Source: Gracilimonas sp.
GTDB taxonomy: Bacteria > Bacteroidota > Rhodothermia > Balneolales > Balneolaceae
NCBI RefSeq assembly: GCF_040218225.1
Contig: NZ_JAVJQO010000004.1
Location: 62,001 to 126,000, forward strand
Length of the DNA stretch: 64,000 nt
Direction of reading: 5' to 3'
This document shows positions 39,138 to 45,292 of the stretch, one piece after another. A program made the translations under genes and the position numbers. The notes under the pieces were generated by a model. It was not told the DNA's origin. It worked only from the letters and a program-made list of their open reading frames with translations, and did not search any database. Positions within the stretch are counted from its first letter, which is position 1. The number at the start of each line of letters is the position of its first letter.

Positions 39138-39509
39138 TTAATTATCGCCGTTTCCTTCGGTGTTATCCTGCTGCTGTTGCTGAGGAATAGCCGGAGCCGT
39201 TTGAGAAGGAGATTCAATAGGTGCATTTACACCCGGTCCGCCTTCCTGTAAAATACTCCGATCCACTTCTCCGCGATCAATCGCAAAGTTAGCCAGCACA
39301 CAAAGTGCTAAAAATAGAGCTGCAAGTATTGATGTCGACTTCGATAGCAAGTCAGCTGTTCTTCGGGCGCCAAGTCCGCCACCTCCACCGAGGCCGCCTC
39401 CGCCACCCATTCCGGAAATTCCTTGTCCCTGACCTGGCTGCAGTAAAACAACCACGATTAACAGGAAGCAAATAACAGCAATAACTCCTACAATTATATT
39501 ATAAAGCAT
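39138..39509 (-). CDS. secG: Preprotein translocase subunit SecG
   Basis: 123 residues. Two hydrophobic helices: NIIVGVIAVICFLLIVVVLLQPGQGQG, then a Gly-rich loop GGGGGLGGGGGLGARRTADLLSKSTSILAALFLALCVLANF. The LLQPG-x-G and the TA-DLLSKST pattern are characteristic of SecG. C-terminal Gln-rich tail. Component of SecYEG, matching the secA end at the start of the window. Confidence 0.93.
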   Translation of the reverse strand: MLYNIIVGVIAVICFLLIVVVLLQPGQGQGISGMGGGGGLGGGGGLGARRTADLLSKSTSILAALFLALCVLANFAIDRGEVDRSILQEGGPGVNAPIESPSQTAPAIPQQQQQDNTEGNGDN

Positions 39510-39604: not shown

Positions 39605-40525
39605 ATGCAAGAGTTCACAGACCAAATCGCCGAATTTATCGCAAGCTCACCAAGTCTTACCGTTCAGATTGTAGAAACGGTTGCCATCATCCTCATCCTT
39701 TGGGTTATCCGGTTAATAACGGTTCGTGTTATTCAGCGCAATGTAGAGAACAAAAAGAGTGTTTATAAGTGGCGCAAGAATATCACGTACATCGCTTTCT
39801 TTATTGGCCTTTTGATTGTAGGTCAGATTTGGTTTGATGCTCTCGGCTCCCTTGGCACGTTCCTGGGGCTGTTATCTGCGGGTATCGCTATTGCCCTGAA
39901 AGACCCGGTAACCGATATCGCCGCCTGGATGTTCTTAATCTGGAGAAAGCCTTTCGATATCGGCGATCGCATTCAGGTCGGGTCATCAAAAGGTGATGTA
40001 ATCGATATCCGGGTGTTCAAATTCACCATACTGGAAATAGGAAATTGGGTAGATGCTGACCAAAGTACCGGCCGGGTCATTCATATTCCCAACCACAAAG
40101 TATTCACTGAAGACCTTGCTAACTACACCAGCGACTTCGAGTTCATCTGGAATGAGATGGGCGTGCTCGTAACCTTTGAGAGTGATTGGAAGAAAGCCAA
40201 GAAGATTTTGGAAGAAGTAGTTGATGAAAACATGCAGGAATTTGTGGAACAGGCACGGGAGGAAGTCAAAAAAGCCGAAAAATCCTATCTCATTCAGTAT
40301 CGATACCTGACCCCTATTGTTTATACCAGCGTAAAAGACAGCGGAATCAACCTTTCCATTCGCTACTTATCGGACCCCAGAAAAAGAAGGGGTATTTCAC
40401 AGGCTATTTGGGAATCTGTGCTGGATCGATTTGCAGAACACGACGATATCGACTTCGCCTACCCAACCATCCGCTACTACGACAACTCCACCGAAGGGAA
40501 GCCCGGAACTACTCCAGATAGCTAA
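39605..40525 (+). CDS. MscS-family mechanosensitive ion channel
   Basis: 306 residues. Two-to-three membrane helices (TVQIVETVAIILILWVIRL and ITYIAFFIGLLIVGQIWF), then LGTFLGLLSAGIAIALKDPVTDIAAWMFLIWRKPFDIGDRI, the conserved TM3/beta-domain junction of small MscS-like channels, a cytoplasmic beta/alpha domain and a polar tail. Releases solutes on osmotic downshift. Its ATG has a GAGG upstream; divergent from secG, 95 bp between starts. Confidence 0.9.
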   Translation: MQEFTDQIAEFIASSPSLTVQIVETVAIILILWVIRLITVRVIQRNVENKKSVYKWRKNITYIAFFIGLLIVGQIWFDALGSLGTFLGLLSAGIAIALKDPVTDIAAWMFLIWRKPFDIGDRIQVGSSKGDVIDIRVFKFTILEIGNWVDADQSTGRVIHIPNHKVFTEDLANYTSDFEFIWNEMGVLVTFESDWKKAKKILEEVVDENMQEFVEQAREEVKKAEKSYLIQYRYLTPIVYTSVKDSGINLSIRYLSDPRKRRGISQAIWESVLDRFAEHDDIDFAYPTIRYYDNSTEGKPGTTPDS

Positions 40526-40640: not shown

Positions 40641-41324
40641 TCAGTCGTCATCAGCACCATCATAGTTGCGGAGTTTTGGGATTGGCTGCACCAGCTCTTT
40701 GGAGTTATTAGAAGGGTCATTCACTAATTCAGGTACTCTGAAAACCGACATATCCGGCAGCAAGTGATTTCCTGAAAACCCTTTTTCCAGCATTTCGGGA
40801 GCATCTCCGTTTAACCAACGGCCGTAGTCCTTTTCATCCAATATAACCGGCATCCGGTCATCCAATGGCTCAACCAGAGCATTCGCCGGCATAGTAATAA
40901 CAGCATATGAATGAACCTTCCTTCCGTTTTTATTTTCAAATGAAGAGTAGATTCCAGCAAGACCTGTAACATCGGTAGTCAATACTCTTAAAAAAAATGG
41001 CAGCGGATCTTCCACCGTCTCTTTCCATTTATAAAACCCTGAAACCGGAATGATACATGGGGAATTTTCCACGAGTTTGTCCAGGTTTTCTTTTTCAGCA
41101 ATCTCTTCCTGAGGTACTTCGAAAAATTCTTCATCAGTATTTTTTTGCTGAAGTCCCCATTCCGAACTTACCACTGTCCGACTCTCACCATCTTTGATAA
41201 TGATAGGCATCGTAGTGCCGGGTATCACATTATAATTAGGATTAAAGAGGCTTTCAGCATCGGTATTGGCATCAAATGCTTCCTCAATGATAAATTTATC
41301 GGCTTCTAAAACATATCGTTTCAT
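40641..41324 (-). CDS. SRAP-fold (YedK/HMCES-like) protein lacking catalytic residues
   Basis: 227 residues. Recognisable SRAP blocks: YNVIPGTTMPII (canonical YNVxPG) and SEWGLQ, CIIPVSGFYKWKET, LAGIYSSFENKNG, AVITMPANALVEP and DDRMPVILDEKDYGRWL. In active SRAP proteins residue 2 is Cys (crosslinks to abasic DNA), the Glu in GFYEWK and the His in IHxRMPVIL are catalytic. Here residue 2 is Lys, residue 99 is Lys, and the His position (155) is Asp. The NARxET DNA-binding motif also looks missing. No in-frame Met-Cys start exists upstream (stop 24 bp before). Probably a pseudoenzyme. Confidence 0.8.
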   Translation of the reverse strand: MKRYVLEADKFIIEEAFDANTDAESLFNPNYNVIPGTTMPIIIKDGESRTVVSSEWGLQQKNTDEEFFEVPQEEIAEKENLDKLVENSPCIIPVSGFYKWKETVEDPLPFFLRVLTTDVTGLAGIYSSFENKNGRKVHSYAVITMPANALVEPLDDRMPVILDEKDYGRWLNGDAPEMLEKGFSGNHLLPDMSVFRVPELVNDPSNNSKELVQPIPKLRNYDGADDD

Positions 41325-41389: not shown

Positions 41390-41426
41390 AACGCAGAGAC
41401 GCAAAGGTTTCGCAGAGAGCACTGAG
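41390..41426. repeat. Left GCAGAG-rich flank of the GxxExxY gene
   Basis: ACGCAGAGACGCAAAGG, then TTCGCAGAGAGCACTGAG. Inverted relative to the right flank at 41850-41922 (which reads GCAGAG on its minus strand). Confidence 0.7.
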
Positions 41427-41454
41427 CCTTCTATGTTGACTCTTTCAGGAATAA

Positions 41455-41848
41455 ATGCTTAAATCAGGAATGATAGAAAATGAATTATCAAAAATAATAA
41501 TAGGAACTTGTATTGAAATTCATCGGGAGCTTGGGCCCGGGCTTTTGGAATCAGTTTATGAAGAGGTTTTGTTTTCTGAATTAAGTGAGAAGGGATTGCA
41601 TGTTCAACGTCAGGTTTCAGTTCCGCTATTATATAAAGAGATACACTTTGAAACTGCTTACAGATTAGACCTGCTCGTAAATAACCGGGTTATCATGGAA
41701 ATTAAGGCTGCAGAAAGCTTAGCTCCGGTCCATTATTCACAATTACTCACTTATTTAAAACTATCGAATAAAAAAACTGGGCTTGCTCATAAACTTCAAT
41801 GTGAAGCTCTTAAAGGAAGGTATCCATCGAGTGGTAAACAAACTATAA
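41455..41848 (+). pseudogene. GxxExxY-family gene, frameshifted in an A7 run
   Basis: Seen: IIIGTCIEIHRELGPGLLESVYEEVLF (the GxxExxY motif, GLLESVY), LLYKEIHFETAYRLDLLVNNRVIMEIKAAESLAPVHYSQLLTYLKL. Codons to 41775 are normal; after the AAAAAAA run (41770-41776) the frame leaves the family. With one A fewer, translation continues KKLGLLINFNVKLLKEGIHRV... to a stop at 41846-41848, the complete family C terminus. So the gene is either broken by slippage, a sequencing error, or phase-variable. As read it fuses with the next ORF. Confidence 0.8.
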
Positions 41849-41849
41849 A

Positions 41850-41922
41850 CTCTGCGAGCTTTGCGATACCTCCGCGTTCTTTGCGATCTCCTTTGAGAGT
41901 CTCTCCGCGCCCTCTGCGTTTA
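41850..41922. repeat. Right GCAGAG-type repeat flank of the GxxExxY gene
   Basis: Five TCTGCG/TTTGCG/CCGCG-type units (CTCTGCGAGCTTTGCG, CCGCGTTCTTTGCG, CTCCGCGCCCTCTGCG). Reverse complement of the same unit type as the left flank; the pair brackets the GxxExxY gene. Confidence 0.7.
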
Positions 41923-41973
41923 ATACACACTTTTTTTATTACCTTCCTCCAAAACATACATCAACCATTGCCC

Positions 41974-42924
41974 ATGCAAAATCCATTTTTTAATTCGGAA
42001 GAAAACAGGCTTCGGTCTTTATTTCGGGTACTCCTGTTCATCTTCTTATTTGTTTTTATGATGGTAATTCCATCCCTGATCCCCTACACGGCTCTGGATT
42101 ACATAGGCAGATCCGTACTCACCCTTGGGCTGTTCTACATCATGTTCCGCTATGTTGATGGACGTTCCTGGACTTTTTCAGGCTTAATTATTGACAGAAC
42201 ATGGCTCAAAGAGTGCGTAGCCGGAATAGTAATTGCTGGTGGCGTGATGGGGCTAATTTTCTTCACCGAATGGCAAACGGACGGACTGGAAATAACCGGC
42301 TTTAGCTGGGACCGCAGCGGAGAAACATTTTGGCTGATTTCCCTGCTTGTCTTTTTTGTACAAATGGCTTCCGTAGGTTTTTATGAGGAAGTAATGGCCC
42401 GGGGATATTTGTTGCCAAATATTACAGAGGGATTCACACTGGGCAGTATCACTCCTCAAAAAGTCGCCATCATAGCCATTGTCATTAGTTCAGCTATTTT
42501 TGGGCTTGGTCATGCCGGAAACCCCAATGCAAACATAACCGCAGTTGTGAACATCGTTTTGGCTGGGGTGATGCTGGCCGTGCCCTTCATTATTACTGGT
42601 CGTTTAGCGTTCTCCATTGGCATTCACTTTTCATGGAATTTTTTCCAGGGCGGAATATTCGGCTTTCGGGTAAGCGGCACAGAAGTGCGGAACTCACTGG
42701 TTCAGATTCAGCAGGGCGGGCCAGATTGGTGGACGGGGGGCTCCTTCGGTCCCGAAGCCGGGCTGATTGGAGTGTTGGGCATCCTCTTAATTTTGGGCTT
42801 AACGCTGTTTTACCTGAAACAAACAGGCGTTAAAATGACCTATGCAGAATTATTTTCGAACACCTTTACAGAACAAAAGAGAATGAAAGAAATAGCCGAA
42901 GATTCTAATTTGGAACCGAAGTAA
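41974..42924 (+). CDS. CPBP-family intramembrane metalloprotease (CAAX protease-like)
   Basis: 316 residues from ATG 41974 (MQNPFFNSEENRLRSLFRVLLF). Multiple membrane helices. CPBP/Abi motifs: FYEEVMARGYLL (EExxxR), FGLGHAGNP (FxxxH) and HFSWNFFQGG (HxxxN). Proteolysis of membrane-bound proteins, unknown target. The upstream frame is open through the GxxExxY remnant, but ATG 41974 is the proper start. Confidence 0.87.
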   Translation: MQNPFFNSEENRLRSLFRVLLFIFLFVFMMVIPSLIPYTALDYIGRSVLTLGLFYIMFRYVDGRSWTFSGLIIDRTWLKECVAGIVIAGGVMGLIFFTEWQTDGLEITGFSWDRSGETFWLISLLVFFVQMASVGFYEEVMARGYLLPNITEGFTLGSITPQKVAIIAIVISSAIFGLGHAGNPNANITAVVNIVLAGVMLAVPFIITGRLAFSIGIHFSWNFFQGGIFGFRVSGTEVRNSLVQIQQGGPDWWTGGSFGPEAGLIGVLGILLILGLTLFYLKQTGVKMTYAELFSNTFTEQKRMKEIAEDSNLEPK

Positions 42925-43657: not shown

Positions 43658-45292
43658 TTGTCTTTTGAAGAATTTGGCCTTAGCCCCGAACTATTGAGTG
43701 GGCTGGCCGACGTACGAATTGAAAAACCCACACCTCTCCAAACTGAAGTTATTCCACCGGCACTACAAGGCAGACATATGCTTGTAAAACATGAAGCCGG
43801 TGATGACGGTGTATTTTTGATACCTGCTTTGCAAAAGCTGACAAGCAACGGAGAGGTTTCTGGCATACGAGTTTTAATACTAACACCATCTATTGAGCGA
43901 GTTAAGGAAATAGACGAAACGGTTTGGGCCATGGGCTACCATGCTCAAATTAGTAGCGCAGCACTTTCCATGAAAGGAATTCGCACTGCTCAGGAAGAAG
44001 CAATAAAAGATGGAGCACCGGTTGTGGTAGCTAACCCCGGCCGGCTGATTGAAATACTGGATAAAAATAAGCTTAAGCTTCCCAAAGTGGATCTCGTCAT
44101 TATTGATGAAGCCCACGGCATGGAAAACTATAACCTGGTGAGCCGGGTGAAGGACATCATGCAGCTAACGGAGGGCGAACCACAGACCCTTATTTTTTCC
44201 AAATCCAATAACAAAGCTACCCAACAGCTTACTTCAGCCCTGCTGAAAGATCCCGTTGTGCACGGCTTTGATGCCTCTAATGTTGAGGATGCAAAACCCG
44301 AGGCTTCTTCCGACCAAAAAGCTGATGACAAAGAAGAAGAATCTGAAAAAGAGAATTCAACTTCAGAGCAGAAACAGGAAGATTTCGAGCTGAATCAGGA
44401 AGAAGTGAACCGCAAGCTTGCCGAAGCCAGTGTAAGTGTAGTGCTCAACCCGGAAGAAAATAAAGAGGAAGAAGAGAAACAGGATAAAAAAGAAGCCAAA
44501 GCTGAAGCTGAAGCTCAGAATGAAGAAGAGCCTGCTGTTCCTGAAGACCTGACCCAGGCGTATATTTACGTTCCTCCCAGAGCAAAAATATCAACTCTGC
44601 TGGCCCATCTTGAAGATACACTGACCGACAAGATCGTGGTTTTTGCTGCTTCCAAGCGCACCACCGACCGCCTGTTCCGCATTATCCGCAAGAAAGGATG
44701 GGGTGTGGTTAGCATCAACGAAGGACTGAAGCAGGAATATTATGACGAACGCTTTGGTAAGTTTACTTCCGGCGACATGAAGATTCTGCTGGTTGGCGGA
44801 CTTTCAGCCACTGAAGTAGAACTCAATGAAGTGAAGCAGGTCATTAATTATGACGTGCCGAACGAAGTGGAAGAGTATAAGTATCGCGCGGAGCTGGTTG
44901 GAAATGGAAAAGCCGCCCGAATGGTGTCGCTGGTATCCAAAATGGATAAAGACGACATCGACGAAATTGTGAAGAAAGTAGGTTACGCGCCCACTGAAAT
45001 CCCGCTTCCTGAAGAAGTGAAGGAGAAAAAAGGCCGTGGTAAAAAGTCTGACAAATCTGATAAAAAAGACAAAAGCTCGAAGAAAAAGAGCAAGAGTAAT
45101 AACAATAAAAAGAACGACGACCGCGACCGAAAGCGCCGCCAAAAGCCGAAAGAGAAGCAATCCTCCAACGGTCTGCCACGACCAAGTTATGACGGGCTTT
45201 CCGGTGGAAAAGAAGGCGATAAAAACGGCAAACGACCAAACCCGGGCAAATCTGACGGAGCCTTCGGCTGGATTAAGAAGCTGTTTGATTAA
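43658..45292 (+). CDS. DEAD-box helicase-like protein without a P-loop
   Basis: 544 residues. Domain 1 (about 1-205) keeps the Q motif (KPTPLQTEVIPPAL), a motif-Ib-like NPGRL and DEAH at 150-153, but the Walker A lysine motif (AxTGxGKT) is replaced by KHEAGDDG at 44-51. Motif III (SAT) is SKS. An acidic low-complexity insert (about 207-295) precedes domain 2 (296-430), which has KIVVFAASKRTTD and VINYDVPNEVEEY, but motif VI (HRxGRxGR) is YRAELVGNG. C-terminal Lys-rich tail from 456. TTG start with AGAGGTG upstream. Likely RNA-binding pseudohelicase. Confidence 0.85.
   Translation: MSFEEFGLSPELLSGLADVRIEKPTPLQTEVIPPALQGRHMLVKHEAGDDGVFLIPALQKLTSNGEVSGIRVLILTPSIERVKEIDETVWAMGYHAQISSAALSMKGIRTAQEEAIKDGAPVVVANPGRLIEILDKNKLKLPKVDLVIIDEAHGMENYNLVSRVKDIMQLTEGEPQTLIFSKSNNKATQQLTSALLKDPVVHGFDASNVEDAKPEASSDQKADDKEEESEKENSTSEQKQEDFELNQEEVNRKLAEASVSVVLNPEENKEEEEKQDKKEAKAEAEAQNEEEPAVPEDLTQAYIYVPPRAKISTLLAHLEDTLTDKIVVFAASKRTTDRLFRIIRKKGWGVVSINEGLKQEYYDERFGKFTSGDMKILLVGGLSATEVELNEVKQVINYDVPNEVEEYKYRAELVGNGKAARMVSLVSKMDKDDIDEIVKKVGYAPTEIPLPEEVKEKKGRGKKSDKSDKKDKSSKKKSKSNNNKKNDDRDRKRRQKPKEKQSSNGLPRPSYDGLSGGKEGDKNGKRPNPGKSDGAFGWIKKLFD

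What the first reader, a model, noticed from the sequence alone, without database searches (positions are those of the whole stretch)
40641..41324. SRAP/YedK-like protein with Cys2, Glu and His replaced
Residue 2 is Lys, GFYEWK reads GFYKWK (Lys99), and the His of IHxRMPVIL is Asp155. The fold motifs (YNVxPG, DRMPVIL) remain. In the known enzyme, Cys2 crosslinks to abasic sites in single-stranded DNA and Glu/His assist. This paralog cannot form that crosslink and is not translated from a Met-Cys start.
Basis: partly seen in the sequence, partly recalled or inferred. Interest (0 to 1): 0.62.

Follow-up and report, generated by a model that had tools for sequence, protein, structure and literature searches.

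The report
Retired DNA-repair enzyme kept in place
A marine bacterium keeps, under strong selection, a protein with the shape of a known DNA-damage-capping enzyme but without its chemical working parts, and related bacteria carry the working version at the same spot in the genome.

Summary
The 227-aa protein at 40641-41324 (-) is a full SRAP-fold protein (PF02586; model pLDDT 94; Z about 26 to YedK) without Cys2, Glu105, His160 and the N-x-R motif of YedK/HMCES. No start codon exposes a Cys. It is not a private oddity: from 77 of 92 Balneolaceae genomes I fetched this ortholog without Cys; the 77 form one group, are under purifying selection (dN/dS 0.04-0.18 in 18 pairs) and share a signature of their own (PF..R, N.L..P, a C-terminal Q(P/A)(I/L)PK segment). 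In sister family f3 an intact Cys2 SRAP sits at the same position (13 of 13 loci tested). So the enzyme seems to have lost its chemistry in place. The window genome also has an intact SRAP elsewhere, of another SRAP lineage; 25 of the 77 genomes show no other SRAP. The same in-place loss appears separately in another Bacteroidota family (f39), with graded intermediates. The paper that named the domain calls these residues absolutely conserved. Best reading: a pseudoenzyme with a non-covalent binding role; its partner is unknown. [quoted passage not shown]

The parts
40641..41324 (-). SRAP-fold gene without the catalytic residues (227 aa)
   Evidence: ORF; PF02586 132.6 bits; model pLDDT 94.0, pTM 0.90; Z about 26
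41319..41324 (-). Met1-Lys2; Met1 takes the register of YedK Cys2
41112..41120 (-). residues 69-71 (EVP) at the place of the N-x-R motif
   Evidence: local alignment there is loose
41028..41030 (-). Lys99 codon, at the catalytic Glu position (YedK Glu105)
40860..40862 (-). Asp155 codon, at the catalytic His position (YedK His160)
40674..40697 (-). ELVQPIPK (residues 210-217), C-terminal segment conserved in the Balneolaceae clade without Cys
39605..40525 (+). MscS-family channel, conserved syntenic neighbour
39138..39509 (-). SecG, conserved syntenic neighbour
41455..42924 (+). CAAX-type (CPBP) protease, divergent neighbour, here with a GxxExxY domain joined in frame at its start
43658..45292 (+). 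DEAD-box helicase, conserved syntenic neighbour

Best explanation
It is a pseudoenzyme: an SRAP repair protein that lost its abasic-site crosslinking chemistry in place, at its ancestral locus, and is kept for a non-covalent role. Shown by computation: fold, loss of Cys/Glu/His/N-x-R, orthology by position to a Cys2 SRAP, purifying selection, and a clade-specific conserved residue set. Inferred: the former active-site cleft and the C-terminal PIPK segment form a binding site for a cellular partner (a protein, or a DNA structure other than an abasic site). It no longer captures abasic sites, because the residues that open the sugar ring and form the Schiff base and thiazolidine are replaced, conserved Arg residues near the pocket are mostly lost in the clade, and Gly3 next to the nucleophile is replaced by a larger, mostly charged or polar residue. 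The partner is not identified.
For: Residues: all 43 Cys2-type Balneolales rows keep C, E, H and the N of N-x-R; of 79 rows without Cys, Glu is kept in 1, His in 2, the N-x-R Asn in 2 and its Arg in 5, the Arg of H-x-R-M-P in 25 (the window protein keeps that last Arg). New constraint: F110 76 of 76, R113 75 of 76, L150 and P153 76 of 76, P216 and K217 76 of 76, D203 69 of 76; in the 43 Cys2 rows the same letters occur in 17, 17, 22, 22, 0, 9 and 2. Selection: 18 pairs without Cys give dN/dS 0.042-0.176, 2 more saturated; 8 Cys2 pairs give 0.017-0.136, 3 saturated. Fold: pLDDT 94.0, pTM 0.90; Z 26.8 to BT_1218 and 26.0 to YedK C2A-DNA. Orthology: each of the 30 Balneolaceae loci has at least one of helicase, CAAX, MscS, SecG near the gene; 13 of 13 tested f3 loci have a Cys2 SRAP near one or more of the same genes (8, 2, 3); f3-type Cys2 rows and 9 rows without Cys group at 96*. 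Replicate in f39: 18 of 20 tested degenerate loci and 6 of 8 tested Cys2 loci have the same alpha/beta hydrolase or FabH-like gene beside them. It does not need an active SRAP: 25 of the 77 genomes have no other SRAP match, 19 of them at least 90% complete.
Against: No partner, expression or binding data. The conserved neighbourhood was already there with the Cys2 enzyme, so it says nothing about the new role. The acidity of the window protein (net -20) is not general: the 35 rows that are neither M-x-R nor MS(D/E)R, which include genus g19, average -3.5, like the Cys2 rows at -3.2, so charge does not exclude DNA binding. Loss of the Asn alone need not matter: YedK N75A slows internal-site crosslinking only modestly (PMC9436759). 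One ortholog carries an in-frame TAG (G059 = L091; the named record L145 ends alike), and 14 of 92 Balneolaceae genomes gave no ortholog (several are incomplete), so it can be lost. Tests for coupled loss of residues are underpowered (5 independent pairs on starred branches).
Confidence: 0.6

Rival explanations
1. Altered chemistry: the N-terminal alpha-amine still forms a Schiff base with abasic sites (lyase or transient cap), without the thiol that locks it.
For: The mature N-terminus is mostly kept in register: the model aligns from residue 1 to YedK residue 2; of 27 M-x-R rows, 26 have a residue 2 after which Met should stay (the 27th, MARR, can be read either way), and of 51 M-x-x-R rows 40 have a small residue after which Met should be removed (the methionine aminopeptidase rule is recalled). 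YedK without the thiol acts as a lyase, and C2A and C2S adducts were trapped with borohydride through the N-terminal amine (PMC9436759, passages). Lys99 could itself act as a nucleophile in the rows that have it (inference).
Against: Glu105 is needed for Schiff-base formation: C2A E105Q lyase is 25-fold slower than C2A (PMC9436759). Here Glu is Lys in 32, Ile 18, Val 17, Leu 7 of 79, so no general base is conserved and Lys is not conserved either. 11 of 51 M-x-x-R rows should keep an extra Met. The register pattern is largely one subclade against others, not many independent events.
Confidence: 0.15
2. Non-covalent sensor of ssDNA, abasic sites or ss-ds junctions that keeps the SRAP DNA-binding mode but releases its target.
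For: Complete fold; the Arg after position 3 (L001 Arg4), W67 and N42 are invariant, 79 of 79 each.
Against: N-x-R is lost, the Arg of H-x-R-M-P is lost in 54 of 79 (though kept in the window protein), Gly3 is replaced, net charge -20 here. The invariant residues may serve the fold.
Confidence: 0.15
3. A decaying relic with no function.
For: Catalytic residues gone; one ortholog has an in-frame stop; 14 of 92 genomes gave no ortholog.
Against: dN/dS 0.04-0.18 in 18 pairs, presence in 77 of 92 genomes, a new invariant residue set.
Confidence: 0.05
4. Partner or inhibitor subunit of an active Cys2 SRAP in the same cell.
For: A second SRAP match occurs in the window genome and in 52 of the 77 genomes by match count (not every second copy was fetched).
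Against: 25 of 77 genomes have no second SRAP match, 19 of them at least 90% complete.
Confidence: 0.05

Closest known systems
E. coli YedK (SRAP; 6NUA, 6KCQ, 8D2M, 2ICU)
   Same: Whole fold: Z 24.6-26.4 over about 200-213 residues, 18-20% identity
   Different: No Cys2, Glu105, His160, N-x-R; N-terminus one residue shorter; different C-terminal segment
Human HMCES SRAP domain (5KO9, 6OEB)
   Same: Same fold, Z 25.6 and 25.3
   Different: As for YedK; HMCES residues are taken from PMC9436759, not aligned here one by one
Cys2 SRAP of sister Balneolales family f3 (L018, L016, L139 = L149)
   Same: Same genomic locus; 38% identity to L149
   Different: f3 copies keep Cys2, Glu, His and N-A-R
BT_1218 of Bacteroides thetaiotaomicron (2F20)
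   Same: Best structural match, Z 26.8, 22% identity
YedK C2A / C2S laboratory mutants
   Same: SRAP without the thiol
   Different: Mutants keep Glu105 and His160; without the thiol YedK acts as a lyase (PMC9436759); here Glu and His are gone too

Membership tests
SRAP superfamily by homology (Pfam PF02586) | Profile match above the curated cut-off | tested here: met
   132.6 bits, cut-off 27.1
SRAP superfamily by homology (Pfam PF02586) | SRAP fold | tested here: met
   model pLDDT 94.0; Z 21.0-26.8 to the 15 SRAP entries listed; all 20 Foldseek hits with E <= 0.001 are SRAP entries
Abasic-site crosslinking SRAP enzymes (YedK/HMCES type) | N-terminal Cys2 after Met removal | tested here: not met
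   Met1-Lys2; no alternative start with Cys
Abasic-site crosslinking SRAP enzymes (YedK/HMCES type) | Catalytic Glu (YedK Glu105) | tested here: not met
   Lys99
Abasic-site crosslinking SRAP enzymes (YedK/HMCES type) | Catalytic His (YedK His160) | tested here: not met
   Asp155
Abasic-site crosslinking SRAP enzymes (YedK/HMCES type) | N-x-R motif (YedK Asn75 region) | tested here: not met
   E69-V70-P71 at that place; local alignment there is loose
Abasic-site crosslinking SRAP enzymes (YedK/HMCES type) | Crosslink to abasic ssDNA | not testable with these tools
   needs an assay
Schiff-base AP lyases | Amine nucleophile in register with a base to activate it | tested here: inconclusive
   Met1 amine in register, but the Glu base is lost

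The most novel reading that the evidence does not exclude
In Bacteroidota the suicide abasic-site capping enzyme has repeatedly been turned, at its own locus, into a reusable, non-covalent protein with a new conserved binding surface, through graded steps (in some lineages Gly3, Glu and His went while Cys was still there, in others Cys went first), so that some species rely on a retired SRAP alone.
Probability: 0.4. Interest if true: 0.72.

Novelty: new variant of a known kind. Interest (0 to 1): 0.55.

Why it matters
SRAP is usually explained by its N-terminal Cys crosslink, and the 2013 paper that named the domain calls the Cys, Glu and His absolutely conserved (PMC3765255, passages read). 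A bacterial family that keeps the fold under strong selection without the three suggests that SRAP proteins have a second, non-covalent job, which active family members may share. Species in which only the retired form is found offer a natural test: what happens to abasic sites in ssDNA where no crosslinker exists?

Tried and rejected
Rejected: alternative start exposing Cys; pseudogene decay; recent duplicate of the intact copy in the same genome (29% identity; other SRAP lineage); obligate partner of an active SRAP; Lys99 as a universal catalytic Lys (Lys in 32 of 79). The Lys99-Asp155 pair changes together (K/D 23, V/S 14, I/S 11, I/T 6, L/E 6 of 79), which looks like a refitted contact, but the states follow subclades, so it is weak evidence.

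Led nowhere: an upstream-region alignment of 15 loci showed no shared operator that I could see. NCBIfam gave only a sub-cut-off hit to PRK09951 (29 bits, cut-off 349). The YedK-ssDNA structure paper I looked for is not held. PMC3765255 predicts that two conserved Arg contact DNA; that these match the N-x-R and H-x-R Arg is my assumption and was not checked. Paper searches for SRAP with pseudoenzyme, for Cys2-lacking homologs, for SRAP with Balneola, and for inactive SRAP/YedK paralogs listed nothing that by title or abstract start deals with such proteins; this covers the held open-access library only. No model coordinates were available, so no electrostatics or pocket geometry were computed. 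A phylum search with the Balneolaceae profile found no match above 157.2 bits outside the order, but that profile is no census: the f39 protein without Cys scored 132 in it.

Rows dropped: L060 (odd row) from the trees; identical proteins and repeat fetches collapsed from 143 hits to 123; L091 (in-frame stop) and the two f5 rows left out of the 76-row conservation count; L239, L240, L241, L255, L266, L306 left out of the 104-row set (L255 and L306 repeat L264 and L305; L266 had no clear start and is itself without Cys); L324 and L325 were used without an ATG start. The f39 loci were chosen for lower PF02586 score, so their counts are not frequencies. Of the 14 Balneolaceae genomes without a fetched ortholog, the SRAP matches of G107, G108 and G110-G114 were not inspected. 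The genome-contig scan kept the best 80 of at least 575 relatives. Alignment A2 used 53 of those 80 loci plus the window.

Full report
The observation. The ORF at 40641-41324 on the minus strand encodes 227 aa with an ATG start and matches PF02586 at 132.6 bits. The seven codons between the upstream stop and the ATG contain no Cys and no ATG/GTG/TTG. The model from a 54-row alignment has mean pLDDT 94.0 and pTM 0.90. It matches YedK, HMCES and BT_1218 entries at Z 24.6-26.8, mostly with aligned ranges that start at model residue 1 and chain residue 2. Met1 therefore occupies the Cys2 register, and Lys2 the Gly3 register.

It is a clade, not an oddity. The window lies in a Balneolaceae genome; its nearest named relatives in the scan are Gracilimonas, a Balneolaceae bin, Balneola and Aliifodinibius. 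Of 128 Balneolales genomes searched, 92 are in the window's family by my count of the listing. I fetched a SRAP without Cys from 77 of the 92, one of them with an in-frame TAG. In one more, G092, fragments of it lie on two contigs. On the 122-row tree these 77 lie on one side of a starred branch. All 43 Cys2-type rows in the same alignment keep Cys, Glu, His and the Asn of N-x-R. Among 79 rows without Cys, Glu is kept in 1 (L044), His in 2 (L041, L042), the N-x-R Asn in 2 and its Arg in 5, and the Arg of H-x-R-M-P in 25, the window among them.

It is under selection for something else. In 76 Balneolaceae rows, F110, N148, L150, P153, V197, P216 and K217 are invariant, R113 is 75 of 76 and D203 69 of 76. 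P216 is found in 0 of 43 Cys2 rows and D203 in 2 of 43. dN/dS is 0.042-0.176 in 18 close pairs, with 2 further pairs saturated; 8 Cys2 pairs gave 0.017-0.136 with 3 saturated. The strict QP(I/L/V)P(K/R) segment is in 69 of 79 rows without Cys and 0 of 43 Cys2 rows. Of the ten misses, six read QAIPK, one RPLPK, two are the f5 rows, and one is the TAG-truncated ortholog.

Loss in place. The gene order helicase-CAAX protease-SRAP-MscS-SecG is conserved: each of the 30 Balneolaceae loci has at least one of the four neighbours. In sister family f3 one or more of the same neighbours flank an intact Cys2 SRAP in 13 of 13 loci tested: 8, 2 (one without the CAAX gene) and 3 (one, L140, with the CAAX gene only). 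The other 31 Cys2-type loci had none of these neighbours within their short flanks. In an 88-row tree, f3-type Cys2 rows and 9 rows without Cys (two of them of family f5) form a starred set, while L001, the intact copy of the window genome, falls elsewhere. L001 is 29% identical to the window protein over the local alignment and the f3-type L149 is 38%. The simplest account is that the ancestral enzyme lost its chemistry where it stood and other SRAP genes were acquired later; the acquisition is inference. Family f5 (L044, L049) also lacks Cys and has the CAAX gene near it. It lies apart from the 77, next to them, and is unresolved, so one or two losses there cannot be decided.

Other lineages. 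Of 19 hits fetched from several families, 18 start Met-Cys and one (L255, f39) does not. Among f39 loci fetched later there are rows with Cys gone and Glu gone (MIERY/MVERY), rows with Cys kept but Glu and His gone (L304, L305, L317, L321, L322), and rows with Cys replaced by Ser or Pro but Glu and His kept (L288, L294). Of 20 degenerate f39 loci tested, 18 have beside them the same alpha/beta hydrolase or FabH-like gene as 6 of 8 tested Cys2 loci. One close f39 pair, L264/L265, has pN 0.07 against a saturated pS of 0.74. On the 104-row tree the fewest changes are 7 for Cys, 7 for Glu and 9 for His. This is a quick tree with many weak forks, so these are counts on that tree, not proven events. 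In a Geobacteraceae bin, L198 and L210 keep Cys but have Lys for Glu and Asn for His.

Mechanism. By PMC9436759 (passages and one section read) YedK without the Cys2 thiol makes no stable crosslink and gives lyase products through its N-terminal amine. Glu105 is needed for Schiff-base formation, and Glu105 and His160 for ring opening. With these gone, neither a crosslink nor efficient lyase is expected here. The best account is a non-covalent pseudoenzyme. That its partner binds the former cleft and the PIPK segment is inference from conservation. A residual Schiff-base role is kept alive by the N-terminal register (26 of 27 M-x-R rows and 40 of 51 M-x-x-R rows fit the recalled Met-removal rule).

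Against my reading: no partner is known, 14 of 92 genomes gave no ortholog (several are incomplete and seven of their SRAP matches were not inspected), one ortholog is broken, and the tests for coupled loss of residues are underpowered. The acidity of the window protein (net -20) is not general: the 35 rows that include genus g19 average -3.5.

Novelty. PMC3765255 (passages read) describes the Cys, Glu and His as absolutely conserved. Searches for SRAP pseudoenzymes or inactive paralogs listed nothing on such proteins (listings and abstract starts seen). I rate it a new variant of a known kind.

Noticed in passing
window 41455-42924 (+): A GxxExxY protein (TIGR04256, residues 11-110) is joined in frame to the start of the CAAX-type protease ORF; many relatives have a separate protease of about 300-340 aa, and four other loci (L036, L037, L039, L048) show a separate cluster-mate of 125-130 aa beside it. 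Looks like an inserted element between the divergent pair.
   Followed up: partly
L288, L294 (family f39); L190 (alphaproteobacterium): Natural SRAPs with Ser2, Pro2 or Thr2 in place of Cys but with Glu and His kept. By analogy with YedK without its thiol they are predicted Schiff-base abasic-site lyases; Pro2 recalls the N-terminal Pro of Fpg/Nei (recalled).
   Followed up: partly
L198:3992-4645, L210:259-909 (Geobacteraceae bin-1737): Two SRAPs of one bin keep Cys2 but have Asp/Glu for Gly3, Lys for Glu, Asn for His and no N-x-R, a convergent change with the window protein.
   Followed up: partly
C-termini of Cys2 SRAPs, e.g. L182, L211, L180, L164, L195, L282: Q-x-x-L-F within the last 16 residues of 10 of 174 Cys2 SRAPs (shuffle mean 0.6, most 3 in 200 shuffles) and [QN]-x-x-L-F in 42 of 174 (shuffle mean 1.3); rows are related, so not independent. 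Resembles the bacterial sliding-clamp binding motif (recalled). None of the 77 Balneolaceae rows without Cys has L-F there.
   Followed up: partly
L091 and L145 (Balneola-type orthologs): In-frame TAG shortens the protein to 176 aa, a sign that the gene can be lost.
   Followed up: no
window about 41390-41430: Short repeat-like stretch between the SRAP gene and the GxxExxY ORF, nearly the same upstream of the gene in L037.
   Followed up: no
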